A stretch of 64,000 nucleotides of DNA from Mycolicibacterium chubuense NBB4 (GTDB lineage: Bacteria > Actinomycetota > Actinomycetes > Mycobacteriales > Mycobacteriaceae): NCBI RefSeq assembly GCF_000266905.1, contig NC_018027.1, positions 1,364,001 through 1,428,000 of the forward strand, given 5' to 3'. Below are positions 17,578 to 33,601 of this stretch, piece after piece (within the stretch, counting starts at the first letter, position 1; every line of letters begins with the position of its first letter). Below the pieces are notes generated by a model. It saw nothing but the letters and a program-made list of their open reading frames with translations. It had not been told where the DNA came from and ran no database searches. The position numbers and the translations under genes were made by a program.

Positions 17578-17637
17578 GCGAGCGCGCGGGTCTGTGCACT
17601 GACACGCCGCAGGAGGTGGCAATCGACGCGCGCTCGC
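17578..17637. repeat. 60-bp interspersed element, copy A
   Basis: Begins GCGAGCGCGC and ends GCGCGCTCGC, giving 10-bp terminal inverted repeats. The core is the most diverged of the three copies seen (shared parts include GACACGC). It lies just after the permease stop. Confidence 0.6.
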
Positions 17638-17696
17638 CGGCGGTGAGCGCCGGCGGTGAGCGCCGGCGGTGAGCGCCGGGCGGTGAGCGCCGGCGG
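17636..17696 (+). repeat. Tandem repeat, 13-bp unit
   Basis: Unit GCCGGCGGTGAGC repeats at 17636, 17649, 17662 and 17675 (the fourth has one extra G) and ends in a partial unit at 17689-17696. No open frame uses it. Such short units are prone to copy-number change. Confidence 0.85.
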
Positions 17697-22374: not shown

Positions 22375-23826
22375 TCACACGAGGCCGAGCTGGCGGTAGA
22401 TCGTCGAACGCCACAGCGGCGCTTGAGAATTGACGAAGATGCCGCCGAGCGCCCAGTCGTGCATCTGCCCGTCGCCGATGATCACGGTGAAATCGGCGTT
22501 CGGGTCCTGGGCCAGCAGCTTGTCGCGGAACATCAGGTCGCCCGGGTAGGGCCGCTCGACCGTCCCGACGTAGATCGTGGTCGGCGGCAGCCCGGTCAGG
22601 TCGTCACCGGAGATCGGATTCACCCGCGGATCGTTGGGGTCCAGGTCGCCGCTGGTGTTCGGGCCCTCCGGATGCGACGGGATGATCGGGTCGTCGATGT
22701 CGTCGACGATCGGGCCGGTCAGCGTCAGATGCAGCACCGGCGAGATCAGCACCATCCGCGAGGGTTCCGCCTCGGGCAGCGAGCACTGCGCGTCGGACTT
22801 GCAGCGCCGCACCAGTTCCTGGGCCACCAGCATCGCGTAGGTGCCGCCCGCCGAGTCGCCGTACAGGCTGACGTTGTCGGCGCCGTGCTGGTCGATCAGC
22901 GCCGACACGTAGTCGGCCATCGGGGGGACGAGCGTCTCGATCGTCGCGTCGCCTTTCGGCGGCGCCAGCGGATAGATCGGCACGACCACGGTGGCGCCGG
23001 TCCGGCGGGCCATCGCGGCGTAGTCGGCCCAGTTGATGATGTTGGCCTCCGCGACGAACCCGCCGCCGTGCAACGCGAGGACGTACTCGCCCGACGGGGC
23101 CTTCTTCGGCGCGAGCTCCCACACCGTCTCGCCGTTGTACTCGGTTTCGGTGACGGACACACCGGGCCTGGCGAACCACGGCGGCGAGGTGCTGACCAGG
23201 TTGCCGCCGTCCCCGACGAACGCCCCGGGGTCGGTGCGGCGCAGCGTCTGCAGCGTCGTGAGGACGAACCGGTCCCACAGCGACGAGGGTCCGGTCGTGA
23301 CGGTCACCGGCCCGGTGGCCGCGCCCTCGCGGACGAGTTTGCGATACTCCGCGGGTCGCAGGGTGTCGGCAGGCTCGCTGGTCGTCGCCGGGGCGACCGC
23401 CCGCCGGCGGGTCGGCGTGACCGCGTCGCGGCGTGCCGCCGCGGTCAGCGTCCACAGCTGCGGGGCGACGGCGGGTGCGTCATCGGTGTGCGCGGGCAGG
23501 CGGGTCTTGGCGCGCCTCGGCGCGGCCGGCTCCTTCGACTCGGTCTTCTCACGTGACTCGGTCTTCTCACGTGACTCGGCCGCGTGCTTACGAGCCTTGT
23601 CGCGCAGTGCTTTCCGGTCGGCGGCCCTGCCCGACGACCTGGCCTTGACCGACGTGCGCGGCGTCCTCTCGGCCCGCGCCGTCGACGACACGGCACTGTG
23701 CGTCGACGACCCGGTCGAGTCGTCGGCCGACGCGACCGCGCAACCCCACCCTGTGAATGCCGCCGCGCCGATCCCGGCTGCCACGGCGAAGCCGGCGACC
23801 ACGCCGACGCTGTTCCCACCCCGCAT
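22375..23826 (-). CDS. Secreted alpha/beta-hydrolase esterase, copy A (HSL type)
   Basis: A 483-residue exported esterase. The signal peptide (GFAVAAGIGAAAFTG, cut near VASA-DD) is followed by about 130 low-complexity charged residues that include three REKTES-like units, then a hormone-sensitive-lipase-type hydrolase (about 200-483). Catalytic marks are the oxyanion loop LHGGGF, the nucleophile GDSAGG and a His in MHDWALGG. Substrates of this class are short acyl esters. The C-terminal domain is nearly the same as the upstream gene 70 bp away, so the pair arose by tandem duplication and is probably co-transcribed. Confidence 0.87.
   Translation of the reverse strand: MRGGNSVGVVAGFAVAAGIGAAAFTGWGCAVASADDSTGSSTHSAVSSTARAERTPRTSVKARSSGRAADRKALRDKARKHAAESREKTESREKTESKEPAAPRRAKTRLPAHTDDAPAVAPQLWTLTAAARRDAVTPTRRRAVAPATTSEPADTLRPAEYRKLVREGAATGPVTVTTGPSSLWDRFVLTTLQTLRRTDPGAFVGDGGNLVSTSPPWFARPGVSVTETEYNGETVWELAPKKAPSGEYVLALHGGGFVAEANIINWADYAAMARRTGATVVVPIYPLAPPKGDATIETLVPPMADYVSALIDQHGADNVSLYGDSAGGTYAMLVAQELVRRCKSDAQCSLPEAEPSRMVLISPVLHLTLTGPIVDDIDDPIIPSHPEGPNTSGDLDPNDPRVNPISGDDLTGLPPTTIYVGTVERPYPGDLMFRDKLLAQDPNADFTVIIGDGQMHDWALGGIFVNSQAPLWRSTIYRQLGLV
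23537..23579. repeat. 18-bp tandem repeat inside esterase A
   Basis: GACTCGGTCTTCTCACGT is present at 23537-23554 and 23555-23572, then a partial copy to 23579. On the minus strand it encodes repeating REKTES units in the linker between signal peptide and enzyme. Copy number may vary between strains without shifting frame. Confidence 0.85.
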
Positions 23827-31191: not shown

Positions 31192-31878
31192 ATGGACACC
31201 ATGAGGCAAAGGATCCTGGTCGTCGACGACGACCCTTCGCTCGCCGAGATGCTCACGATCGTGCTGCGCGGCGAGGGCTTCGACACCGCGGTCATCGGCG
31301 ACGGTACCCAGGCGCTGACCGCCGTGCGGGAGCTGCGGCCCGATCTGGTGCTGCTGGACCTGATGCTGCCCGGCATGAACGGCATCGACGTCTGCCGGGT
31401 GCTGCGCGCGGACTCCGGTGTGCCCATCGTGATGCTGACGGCCAAGACGGACACCGTCGACGTCGTGCTCGGCCTGGAGTCCGGCGCCGACGACTATGTG
31501 ATGAAGCCGTTCAAGCCCAAGGAGCTGGTGGCCCGTGTGCGCGCCCGGCTGCGGCGCAACGAGGACGAGCCCGCCGAGATGCTGTCGATCGGCGACGTCG
31601 ACATCGACGTGCCGGCCCATAAGGTCACCCGGCAGGGCGAGCAGATCTCCCTGACGCCGCTGGAGTTCGACCTGCTGGTGGCGCTGGCACGCAAACCGCG
31701 CCAGGTGTTTACTCGTGATGTGCTGCTCGAACAGGTGTGGGGATACCGCCACCCCGCCGACACCCGTTTGGTGAACGTGCACGTCCAGCGGCTGCGGGCC
31801 AAGGTCGAGAAGGATCCGGAGAACCCGCAGGTGGTGCTCACCGTTCGAGGAGTGGGATACAAGGCCGGACCTCCGTGA
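31192..31878 (+). CDS. mtrA: MtrA response regulator
   Basis: A 228-residue OmpR/PhoB-type regulator, essential in M. tuberculosis and linked to DNA replication and cell division. The receiver domain shows VDDD, the phosphorylation site LLDLMLPG with Asp56, and TAKTD; the winged-helix DNA-binding domain (about 130-228) ends [10 protein letters not shown]. The chain follows M. tuberculosis MtrA almost residue for residue. The ATG at 31192 gives the standard [10 protein letters not shown] start. The stop TGA overlaps a GTG that opens a short repeat-coded peptide leading to mtrB. Confidence 0.98.
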
Positions 31879-31946
31879 TCGCACGGCTCGCCGTGGTCGT
31901 GATCGCACGGCTCGCCGTCGCAGTGATCGGACGGCTCGCCGTCGCA
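31875..31946 (+). repeat. Three 24-bp repeats between mtrA and mtrB
   Basis: Units at 31875-31898, 31899-31922 and 31923-31946 begin GTGATCGCACGGCTCGCCGT (third unit has GGACGG in place of GCACGG). The last four bases are GGTC, CGCA and CGCA. The unit length is a multiple of three, so copy-number change keeps the reading frame. Confidence 0.93.
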
Positions 31947-31961
31947 GGGCCCCGTCAGTGA
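31875..31961 (+). CDS. 28-residue repeat-coded peptide linking mtrA to mtrB
   Basis: A GTG at 31875 overlaps the mtrA stop (GTGA) and opens 28 codons, three near-identical hydrophobic octads of the [24 protein letters not shown] type plus GPRQ, ending in a TGA at 31959-31961 that overlaps the mtrB GTG at 31958. The frame is thus coupled at both ends. It would let ribosomes pass from mtrA to mtrB across the repeat. The peptide could also insert in the membrane, with an Arg every eight residues. Whether it is made is unknown; mycobacterial MIRU units in the senX3-regX3 gap are a known parallel. Confidence 0.5.
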
Positions 31962-33601
31962 TCTTCGGCTCGAGGCGGCGCATCCACCGGCGGTCGGCAC
32001 CACTCATCCGCGGGCTGGGCGCGCTGGGTCGGGCGATCAGCTTGGCGTGGCGACGGTCTCTGCAGCTGCGCGTCGTGACCTTGACGCTCGGTCTGTCGCT
32101 CGGCGTCATCCTGGTTCTCGGCTTCGTGCTCACCAGCCAGATCACCGACCGCATCCTGGAAGTCAAGGTCGGCGCCGCCACCGAGGAGATCGAGCGCGCG
32201 CGCACCACCGTCAGCGGCATCGTCGGCGGTGAGGAGACCCGTTCGCTGGACAGCTCGCTGCAGCTGGCCCGCAACACGCTGATCGACCGCAAGGCCGACG
32301 CGGGCGCAGGGCTCGCCGGCACCTTCGACGCGGTGCTCATCGTCCCCGGCGACGGGCCGCGCGCGGCCACCGCCGCCGGACCGGTCGACCAGATCCCCGC
32401 CACCCTGCGCGACTTCGTCAAGGCCGGACAGGTCAGCTACCAGTACGCGACGGTGCACACCGACGGGTTCTCCGGGCCGGCGCTGATCATCGGCAGCCCG
32501 ACGTCCTCGCCGGTGACCAATCTCGAGCTGTACCTGATCTTCCCGCTCAACAGCGAGCAGTCCACGATCGCGCTCGTGCGCGGCACGATGGCCACCGGCG
32601 GCGTAGTGCTGCTGGGCCTGCTCGCCGCGATCGCCCTGCTCGTCGCGCGCCAGATCGTGCTGCCGGTGCGCTCGGCGTCGCGGATCGCCGAACGCTTCGC
32701 CGAAGGTCACCTGACCGAGCGCATGCCCGTGCGCGGTGAGGACGACATGGCGCGGCTGGCGGTGTCGTTCAACGACATGGCCGAGAGCCTGCACCGCCAG
32801 ATCACCCAGCTCGAGGAGTTCGGAAACCTGCAGCGGCGCTTCACCTCCGACGTCAGCCACGAACTGCGCACCCCGCTGACGACCGTGCGGATGGCCGCCG
32901 ACCTGATCCACGACCACGCCGAGGAGCTGGACCCGGCGCTGCGGCGCTCCACCGAGCTGATGGTCAACGAGCTCGACCGCTTCGAGTCGCTGCTCAACGA
33001 CCTGCTGGAGATCTCACGCCACGACGCCGGCGTCGCCGAGCTCGCCGTCGAGGCCGTCGACCTGCGCTCGATCGTGCAGAGCGCCCTCGACAACGTCGGC
33101 CACCTCGCCGAGGACGCCAAGGTCGAACTGATCATCGACCTGCCGGCCGACGAGATCATCGCGGAGATCGACCCGCGCCGCGTCGAACGGATCCTGCGCA
33201 ACCTGATCGCCAATGCGATCGACCACGCCGAACACAAGCCCGTGCGCATCCGGATGGCCGCCGACGCCGACACCGTCGCGGTCACCGTCCGCGACTACGG
33301 CGTCGGTCTGCGCCCGGGCGAGGAGAAGCTGGTGTTCAGCCGATTCTGGCGGGCGGACCCGTCGCGGGTGCGCCGTTCCGGCGGCACCGGCCTGGGCCTG
33401 GCGATCAGCATCGAGGATGCCCGGCTGCATCAGGGCCGGCTCGAGGCGTGGGGCGAGCCGGGTAAGGGTGCCTGCTTCCGGCTCACGCTGCCGCTAGTGC
33501 GCGGGCACAAGGTGACCAGCAGCCCGCTGCCGGTCAAACCGATCGGCGAACCGGCGGGGGTTCCGCCTCGTCGCCGCGAGCCGGCGGGAGAAAGCGTGTG
33601 A
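31958..33601 (+). CDS. mtrB: MtrB sensor histidine kinase
   Basis: A 547-residue membrane kinase partner of MtrA. Membrane segments at about 38-59 and 208-230 enclose a sensor domain of about 150 residues. A HAMP region follows, then HisKA with His301 in [10 protein letters not shown], and an ATPase domain with [16 protein letters not shown] and [10 protein letters not shown]. The C-terminal tail (about 515-547) is Pro/Arg-rich. GTG at 31958 gives a conventional start. The stop overlaps lpqB. MtrB responds to cell-wall and division state by family knowledge. Confidence 0.97.

What the first reader, a model, noticed from the sequence alone, without database searches (positions are those of the whole stretch)
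31875..31961. Repeat-coded 28-residue peptide bridges mtrA and mtrB with stop/start overlap at both ends
Seen: three 24-bp units fill the 79-bp gap; a GTG overlaps the mtrA TGA, the frame stays open through all units, and its TGA overlaps the mtrB GTG. The product is three hydrophobic octads (VIARLAVV type). In-frame repeat length means copies can change without loss of coupling. Known parallel: MIRU units in the senX3-regX3 gap of M. tuberculosis have similar overlaps. Inference: repeat number could tune MtrB level relative to MtrA, or the peptide may itself act in the membrane near MtrB.
Basis: partly seen in the sequence, partly recalled or inferred. Interest (0 to 1): 0.75.

Follow-up and report, generated by a model that had tools for sequence, protein, structure and literature searches.

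The report
Stop/start relay repeats joining mtrA-mtrB
Between two genes of a mycobacterial sensor system lies a small repeat that seems to hand ribosomes from the first gene to the second; related species carry very different inserts there, yet nearly all keep the same stop/start hand-off, which suggests that the hand-off matters and the little peptide does not.

Summary
Across the genus this junction is hypervariable. Of 151 distinct junctions, 32 are a direct GTGA/ATGA overlap and 119 carry 3-261 bp. In 110 of the 119, a ribosome that stops at mtrA and restarts at each overlapping NTG reaches mtrB exactly, against 82.7±3.2 for shuffled interiors and 19.7 after one 1-nt indel. The next junction, mtrB-lpqB, is a plain NTGA overlap in 75 of 80 loci. 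The bridging peptides differ (90 distinct of 92), so the relay, not the peptide, looks selected. Many modules are covarying palindromes set 3 nt before the next NTGA. Similar palindromes lie elsewhere in some genomes, in sense orientation just after stop codons. pbpA-pknA shows the same rule: 16 of 16 gapped junctions. Coupled ORFs inside MIRUs are a known parallel; these units lack the MIRU sequence. Translation was not measured here. A membrane peptide is unsupported; tuning by copy number is untested.

The parts
31192..31878 (+). mtrA (response regulator); stop TGA 31876-31878
   Evidence: ORF of 228 aa; matches in 389 of 396 same-genus genomes. The gene name is from the finding and recalled knowledge.
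31875..31878 (+). GTGA: overlap of mtrA stop and bridge-ORF start
   Evidence: Sequence; the mtrA stop is an NTGA overlap in 146 of 151 distinct junctions
31875..31961 (+). 28-codon bridge ORF ([28 protein letters not shown]), the proposed ribosome relay
   Evidence: Open frame; relay test in relatives
31875..31898 (+). Unit 1; palindrome CACGG-CTCG-CCGTG at 31882-31895
   Evidence: TRF; palindrome scan
31899..31922 (+). Unit 2; palindrome ACGG-CTCG-CCGT at 31907-31918 (stem of 4), outer pair C-C mismatched
   Evidence: Read by eye; TRF
31923..31946 (+). Unit 3; palindrome GACGG-CTCG-CCGTC at 31930-31943
   Evidence: Read by eye (this unit was not in the module scan, because the next NTGA is 35 nt away); TRF
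31947..31957 (+). 11-bp tail GGGCCCCGTCA that brings the bridge stop onto the mtrB start
   Evidence: 24x3+11 = 83 = 2 mod 3
31946..31949 (+). AGGG, weak Shine-Dalgarno-like stretch 8 nt before the mtrB GTG
   Evidence: By eye; not tested
31958..31961 (+). GTGA: overlap of bridge stop and mtrB start
31958..33601 (+). mtrB (sensor kinase)
   Evidence: ORF of 547 aa; 80 named relatives kept. Gene name from the finding and recalled.
33598..33601 (+). GTGA overlap of mtrB and the next gene (lpqB, name recalled), the control junction
   Evidence: NTGA overlap in 75 of 80 loci, checked again

Best explanation
The stretch is a translational relay. The ancestral mtrA-mtrB junction is probably a 4-nt overlap (GTGA) at which a ribosome ending MtrA can restart on MtrB. 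In many mycobacteria of the group that holds the window (fast growers, by recalled species knowledge), short modules, most often 24, 26 or 27 bp, each bounded by NTGA and often holding a palindrome of 14-15 nt placed 3 nt before the next NTGA, have repeatedly entered and multiplied at this junction. Mostly inserts that let the restarting ribosome step from NTGA to NTGA onto the mtrB start have lasted, so the bridge ORF is kept open while its peptide drifts. In the window the ribosome would end MtrA at 31876, restart at GTG 31875, read 28 codons, end at 31959 and restart at GTG 31958. Shown: anatomy, conservation of the relay under sequence turnover, near absence of inserts at mtrB-lpqB, arm covariation, the same rule at pbpA-pknA. 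Inferred: that translation really runs through, that purifying selection on coupling is the cause, and that the palindromes add something (for example hindering independent starts on mtrB).
For: Relay unbroken in 110 of 119 distinct gapped junctions; gap length 1 mod 3 in 95 of 119. Null: 82.7±3.2 with interiors shuffled (dinucleotides and length kept); representatives less than 75% alike 42 of 48 against 26.4±2.3; after one random 1-nt indel 19.7 of 119. Hand-offs among the 142 relaying or direct junctions: 1 in 32, 2 in 92, 3 in 15, 4 in 2, 6 in 1. Control junction mtrB-lpqB: 75 of 80 direct; two of 80 (L065, L068) have 57 and 114 nt extra in frame at the lpqB start. In other genera of the family 17 of 23 loci read as direct GTGA by eye. 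Palindromes: 59 of 110 distinct modules have a stem of 5 or more against 7.4 in shuffles, 51 of those 59 end exactly 3 nt before NTGA; arm pairs Watson-Crick 0.77 against 0.26-0.46 slid (55 slices of 26/27-nt modules) and 0.84 against 0.20-0.54 (16 slices of 24-nt modules); in each set three pairs exceed shuffled partners (z 2.8-5.7) and the others hardly vary (z -0.9 to 1.3). pbpA-pknA: 16 of 16 gapped junctions relay, 10.2±1.6 expected with shuffled letters, 1.9 after an indel. Literature: coupled RTGA small ORFs are over-represented in mycobacteria and the linkage can be kept where the peptide is not (PMC4633059, passages); restart at an AUGA overlap measured for M. tuberculosis ppe2 (PMC11260477, passages).
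Against: Seven of 119 junctions break the relay: five have an mtrA TAG stop with no overlap (L001, L004, L064, L128, L129) and two have an internal TAA/TAG (L085, L162); two more (L077, L169) were scored 'fused', I think because of start placement. Three of the failures are among the 14 junctions nearest the window (MtrB N-terminal identity 93% or more: 11 of 14 relay). So the relay is favoured, not essential. The RNA of the window array folds no better than shuffles (z 0.24), so a hairpin role is not shown for this array. Junction sequences are related by descent; clustering at 75% only partly removes this. Sampling leans to genomes with MtrA nearest the window's. No ribosome profiling or proteomics for this species was available.
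Confidence: 0.72

Rival explanations
1. Neutral module turnover. Slippage, duplication or templated repair at a palindrome makes GTGA-flanked copies, and the frame rule follows because the units happen to be 24, 26 or 27 bp long; no function of the array.
For: Tandem arrays and rapid change between close relatives: gaps of -4, 3, 10, 39, 42, 49, 75, 79, 106, 109 and 136 among the 14 distinct junctions with MtrB N-terminal identity of 93% or more, three of which break the relay; templated repair could also keep arms complementary.
Against: Gap length and openness are jointly constrained beyond shuffles; a second operon with other sequences obeys the same rule in 16 of 16 gapped junctions; mtrB-lpqB, also NTGA, stays almost free of inserts.
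Confidence: 0.2
2. The peptide is the product: a small hydrophobic peptide that acts at the membrane near MtrB.
For: The window peptide has GRAVY 1.54.
Against: 90 distinct peptides of 92, mean GRAVY -0.19, 32 distinct junctions without any; a junction shared by three relatives (L096, L098, L099; MtrB N-terminus of L096 96.5% identical) is the bare overlap.
Confidence: 0.03
3. The array is a promoter or terminator/attenuator that sets mtrB transcription.
For: The MIRU-bearing senX3-regX3 gap of M. tuberculosis was reported to drive regX3 on its own (PMC4213456, passages); palindromes near stop codons elsewhere would suit 3'-end functions.
Against: No sigma-70-like promoter and no U-tract terminator found in 31600-32100 (other promoter types are not covered by that scan).
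Confidence: 0.07
4. A small REP-like mobile palindrome inserts at stop codons in sense orientation; mtrA-mtrB is one target whose stop is also a start. (This concerns the origin of the modules and is compatible with the relay.)
For: TTSACGGCTCRGCCGTS: 54 hits in 36 of 396 genomes against 3 for the reversed control, 53 of 54 with matching outer pair. Of 30 loci read, one per genome: a same-strand stop of an ORF of 90 codons or more within 40 nt before the palindrome in 28 (3.3 expected) and within 6 nt in 14 (0.7 expected; antisense 0); flanking direct repeats of 6 bp or more in 10 of 30 against 5.5% for shuffled pairs. Empty and filled states at one gene end (L400, L403, L404 against L397, L409, L402, by eye).
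Against: Low copy (0-4 hits per genome); several of the 30 loci are one site in sister species; antisense stops within 40 nt also exceed chance (12 of 30, 3.3 expected for the sense test at random positions), so part of the signal is plain gene-end location between convergent genes; duplications at mtrA-mtrB beyond NTGA are weak (28 junctions with a 26-nt insert: downstream identity 0.464 against 0.423 with species shuffled, 46 of 2000 shuffles; upstream 0.402 against 0.434, below chance); no mobilising enzyme was sought; pbpA-pknA modules have other sequences.
Confidence: 0.35

Closest known systems
Mycobacterial interspersed repetitive units (MIRU; Supply 1997, not seen, known here through the review PMC12548453, passages)
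   Same: Short repeats at gene starts with a small ORF joined to the next gene by a 4-nt overlap; the review says this likely lets them insert with little effect on the target gene.
   Different: The window units are 24 bp and palindromic and, by eye, lack the MIRU-like 16-mer GCGACGATGCRGRGCG (a core recalled and read from relatives). Other species carry that 16-mer at the same junction (L060, L062, L073), and L057 has five 53-bp units one base off it.
RTGA-coupled small ORFs of mycobacteria (PMC4633059, passages)
   Same: Small ORF whose TGA overlaps the RTG of the next gene; linkage kept, peptide not.
   Different: The ones counted there begin at leaderless transcript ends; here the bridge sits between two genes and also begins at a stop/start overlap, so two hand-offs are chained, six in L057.
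REP elements (GTAG/CGTC palindromes; PMC3733652, passages)
   Same: Short palindromes near gene ends; that paper notes that GTAG ends often supply a stop codon.
   Different: No GTAG or CGTC tag seen by eye; 0-4 hits per genome instead of the more than 100 copies given as usual for REPs in the abstract of PMC2817692 (listing); the main text of PMC3733652 has no hit for mycobacteri or actinobacteri.
Termination-reinitiation at ATGA overlaps (PMC6728339, search listing only; PMC11260477, passages)
   Same: The proposed mechanism of each hand-off.
   Different: Here the distance between the two genes is bridged by inserted modules that recreate the overlap.

Membership tests
MIRU | MIRU consensus sequence (53/77 bp) | tested here: not met
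   Array read directly. The MIRU-like 16-mer gave 21, 18, 11, 12 and 4 hits in the genomes of L057, L073, L060, L062, L069, none in those of L001, L002, L009, L018, and 2 in that of L096 (10 genomes); the window's own genome was not in that call
MIRU | Dispersed copies of the unit in the genome | tested here: not met
   Exact unit only at this locus; loop-3 palindrome cousins at a few places in the own genome
MIRU | Small ORF coupled at -4 to the next gene | tested here: met
REP elements | Palindrome of 20-40 bp with GTAG or CGTC tag | tested here: not met
   Palindrome 12-15 nt; no tag by eye
REP elements | High copy number (more than 100 per genome) | tested here: not met
   0-4 hits per genome for TTSACGGCTCRGCCGTS in 396 genomes
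REP elements | RAYT transposase in the genome | not tested
   Not searched
Coupled small ORF (RTGA) | TGA of small ORF overlaps RTG of next gene | tested here: met
Coupled small ORF (RTGA) | The small ORF is translated | not testable with these tools
   No ribosome profiling for this species
Rfam RNA families | Match to a curated family | tested here: not met
   No match at E up to 1 in 31700-32150

The most novel reading that the evidence does not exclude
Mycobacteria carry a general 'relay' rule: stop/start overlaps inside operons are entry points for several unrelated families of tiny repeats (palindromic 24-27-bp modules, 35-bp modules, MIRUs), and inserts persist mainly if a restarting ribosome can step across them; the palindromic family is a REP-like element that lands in sense orientation on stop codons. 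Turnover of these arrays would be an evolvable dial on kinase-to-regulator ratio (mtrA-mtrB) and on the cell-wall/kinase operon (pbpA-pknA).
Probability: 0.3. Interest if true: 0.8.

Novelty: new variant of a known kind. Interest (0 to 1): 0.6.

Why it matters
It would turn scattered notes about MIRUs and coupled small ORFs into one rule that can be tested: inserts between coupled genes survive if they keep the stop/start relay. It concerns two operons of regulatory and cell-wall control (mtrAB; pbpA-pknA; roles recalled), gives a natural library of 110 distinct relaying mtrA-mtrB inserts for measuring chained reinitiation, and warns annotators that such bridge ORFs need not encode functional peptides.

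Tried and rejected
Peptide conservation: rejected. Dispersed exact unit in the own genome: not found. A first reading that the palindromes occur only at mtrA-mtrB (31 of 32 hits of the strict pattern: 29 of 30 fetched loci hold mtrA, and the two hits without a locus lie beside such hits) was overturned by looser patterns. A species-matched test for target duplication at mtrA-mtrB gave a weak result downstream and a negative one upstream, so insertion with duplication is not claimed for this junction beyond the shared NTGA. A structural scan of 864 kb of the own genome for NTGA-palindrome-NTGA gave 79 hits against 22 in reversed sequence (a poor control, since NTGA is not kept), mostly looking like coding coincidences; palindromes with flanking repeats of 7 bp or more gave 36 against 13-19 in three shuffles, mixed. 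RNA folding of the array: no excess. Rfam: nothing. Promoter and terminator scan: nothing. Nine literature searches (mtrA/mtrB with MIRU; MIRU with senX3-regX3; coupling in mycobacteria; MIRU with stop/start overlap; palindromes in mycobacteria; REP with stop codon; MtrA/MtrB with ribosome profiling; MIRU-like with two-component; Mycolicibacterium tandem repeats) showed no paper whose listed title or abstract start describes inserts at mtrA-mtrB; some lists were capped, and many subscription papers are not held. Supply 1997 was not seen.

Rows left out: 202 of 210 junction loci were parsed. L031 lacks mtrA; the other seven (L156, L173, L177, L203, L206, L212, L215) failed the start motif. Read by eye, two of these are direct (L156, L212) and five relay; they are not in the counts. 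pbpA-pknA: the 30 best of 97 genomes with a match were taken and 24 of 30 parsed; in 6 no pbpA stop was found. Of 54 palindrome hits, 30 loci were read.

Full report
What is there. The window holds mtrA (31192-31878), a 79-bp gap and mtrB (31958-33601), followed by lpqB, whose GTG overlaps the mtrB stop (gene names from the finding and recalled). The gap is three 24-bp units and an 11-bp tail. GTG 31875 overlaps the mtrA TGA; its frame stays open for 28 codons and ends at TGA 31959-31961 on top of the mtrB GTG. Exact unit copies occur only here in the 6.34-Mb genome.

Comparison. Of these 202 were parsed and gave 151 distinct junctions; some species enter from both collections and collapse there. 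Thirty-two are a bare NTGA overlap, gap -4. The other 119 have 3-261 bp. Inserts differ greatly: 24-bp units as in the window, 26- and 27-bp units, mixtures, short GC-rich stretches, and in some species (slow growers, as I recall their names) MIRU-like units: the 16-mer GCGACGATGCRGRGCG lies at the junction of L060, L062 and L073, and L057 has five 53-bp units one base off it. That 16-mer occurs 21, 18, 11, 12 and 4 times in the genomes of L057, L073, L060, L062 and L069, not in those of L001, L002, L009 and L018, and twice in that of L096.

The rule. Starting at the mtrA stop, I let a ribosome restart on the overlapping NTG, read to the next stop, restart there if it too is NTGA, and asked whether it arrives exactly on the mtrB start. 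It does in 110 of 119. Gap length is 1 mod 3 in 95, 0 in 19, 2 in 5; cases other than 1 succeed by chaining several bridge ORFs. With interiors shuffled and length kept 82.7±3.2 would succeed; among representatives less than 75% alike it is 42 of 48 against 26.4±2.3; one random 1-nt indel leaves 19.7 of 119. Failures: five mtrA genes end in TAG without overlap, two arrays have an internal TAA/TAG; two further cases were scored as fused, I think because of start placement. Three of the TAG cases are among the 14 junctions nearest the window, where 11 of 14 relay. Control: at mtrB-lpqB the mtrB stop is an NTGA overlap whose NTG is in frame with lpqB and open in 75 of 80 loci (GTGA 69, ATGA 5, TTGA 1; CTGA 4, GTAA 1). 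That test would not see inserts of 3n nt, so I checked the distance to the lpqB start: L065 and L068 have 57 and 114 nt extra in frame, L068 with a visible repeat; the others differ by 27 nt or less. In 23 loci of other genera of the family, 17 read as direct GTGA by eye, so the bare overlap is probably ancestral.

The peptide. The 92 single bridges encode 90 distinct peptides of 4-47 residues, mean GRAVY -0.19, 8 of 92 above 1. Hydrophobic octads like the window's appear in species with similar 24-bp units (L009, L131, L138). The junction shared by L096, L098 and L099 (MtrB N-terminus of L096 96.5% identical to the window's) has no bridge. A conserved peptide function is therefore unlikely.

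The palindromes. Of 110 distinct modules of 20-30 nt, 59 hold a stem of at least 5 pairs against 7.4 in shuffles, and 51 of these end exactly 3 nt before the next NTGA. Arms covary: GACCGC/GCGGTC, CACGGC/GCCGTG, CGCGGC/GCCGCG, GTCGG/CCGAC. The Watson-Crick fraction is 0.77 against 0.26-0.46 when slid for 26/27-nt modules (55 slices), and 0.84 against 0.20-0.54 for 24-nt modules (16 slices); three pairs in each set exceed shuffled partners (z 2.8-5.7), the rest hardly vary. Counts are of distinct sequences, not of independent events. The RNA of the window array is not more stable than shuffles (z 0.24), perhaps because the tandem arms can pair in many ways.

Elsewhere. A strict pattern put 31 of 32 hits at mtrA-mtrB. 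A looser one, in 24 genomes, showed tandem copies spaced 25-27 bp at other sites, one in the own genome at C3:4482675; it had 173 hits against 35 for the reversed control by my sum of the rows, part of which is coding sequence. TTSACGGCTCRGCCGTS has 54 hits in 36 of 396 genomes against 3 for the control, 53 of 54 with matching outer pair; one of the 54 (G225) is at mtrA-mtrB. Thirty loci, one per genome, were read: a same-strand ORF of at least 90 codons stops within 40 nt before the palindrome in 28 (3.3 expected at random positions; antisense 12) and within 6 nt in 14 (0.7 expected; antisense 0). Several of the 30 are the same site in sister species. At one gene end relatives show empty (L400, L403, L404) and filled states (L397, L409; L402 with three copies and other arms) (by eye). 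Flanking repeats of 6 bp or more occur in 10 of 30 against 5.5% for shuffled pairs. At mtrA-mtrB itself duplication beyond NTGA was weak or absent. I therefore keep 'REP-like element at stop codons' as a possible but unproven origin.

A second operon. In the own genome the pbpA-pknA junction (names recalled; C3, about 21.35-21.42 kb, minus strand) carries 26-bp ATGA units with palindrome CATGCC-GGA-GGCATG and two chained bridge ORFs of 17 and 9 codons. In relatives (30 best of 97 genomes with a match) 24 of 30 loci were parsed: 16 gapped junctions, all relays (14 of 16 with gap 1 mod 3), 6 direct, 2 without overlap; letter shuffles give 10.2±1.6 and one indel 1.9. The inserts are other sequences, among them 35-bp units that begin with a copy of the first 11 nt of pknA in some species (L431, L450; also L448; read by eye). 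I chose this junction after seeing it in the own genome, so it is not a random sample of junctions. A scan of 864 kb of the own genome found 124 direct and 30 relay junctions between long ORFs, many of the latter probably chance; its filters missed pbpA-pknA.

What it works like and what it is. It works like a chained coupled small ORF: restart at an AUGA overlap was measured for M. tuberculosis ppe2 (PMC11260477), RTGA-coupled small ORFs are over-represented in mycobacteria with linkage kept over sequence (PMC4633059), and a review notes that an ORF inside MIRUs becomes coupled at -4 (PMC12548453). All three were read as passages only. It is not a MIRU by sequence or dispersal, and not a REP by tag or copy number. 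Hence a new variant of a known kind.

Limits. No expression data; one genome per species, so no strain polymorphism; sampling leans to genomes with near-identical MtrA; relatedness only partly removed. The seven genuine failures show that the relay is favoured, not required.

Noticed in passing
Own genome G000:C3:21349-21424 (-), L308 1349-1424: pbpA-pknA junction (names recalled) with 26-bp ATGA units and two chained bridge ORFs (17 and 9 codons); same relay rule in relatives.
   Followed up: yes
L347 1676-1717 (own genome C3:4482675-4482716): Two tandem GACGGCTCGGCCGTC palindromes 27 bp apart, away from mtrA-mtrB.
   Followed up: partly
Own genome G000:C3:256099 (-): After an ORF that reads like sdhB, ATGA units (two of 32 bp, then longer and shorter ones) form a chain of four short ORFs (11, 11, 19, 8 codons) leading into a repetitive ORF.
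   Followed up: partly
Own genome G000:C3:165521 (+), near L281: Another response-regulator gene is joined to a 450-codon ORF by a 15-codon bridge with GTGA at both ends.
   Followed up: no
Own genome contig C1: 61631 and 539216; 66343 and 543928: Two pairs of response-regulator matches lie exactly 477585 bp apart, the first pair with the same score and the second with different scores, suggesting a duplicated stretch or an assembly overlap on C1.
   Followed up: no
window 17635-17696: 13-bp array CGCCGGCGGTGAG, 4.7 copies, just after an ORF that reads like an amino-acid permease; also GTGA-bearing.
   Followed up: partly
window 23537-23579: Perfect 18-bp tandem repeat GACTCGGTCTTCTCACGT, 2.4 copies.
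   Followed up: no
L350 1424-1513: Four 25-bp palindrome units at the 3' end of a gene that reads like pckA; the unit supplies the stop codon.
   Followed up: partly
L068, start of lpqB: 114 nt extra in frame at the mtrB-lpqB junction, with a visible tandem repeat in the predicted N-terminus: one of the few inserts at the control junction.
   Followed up: no
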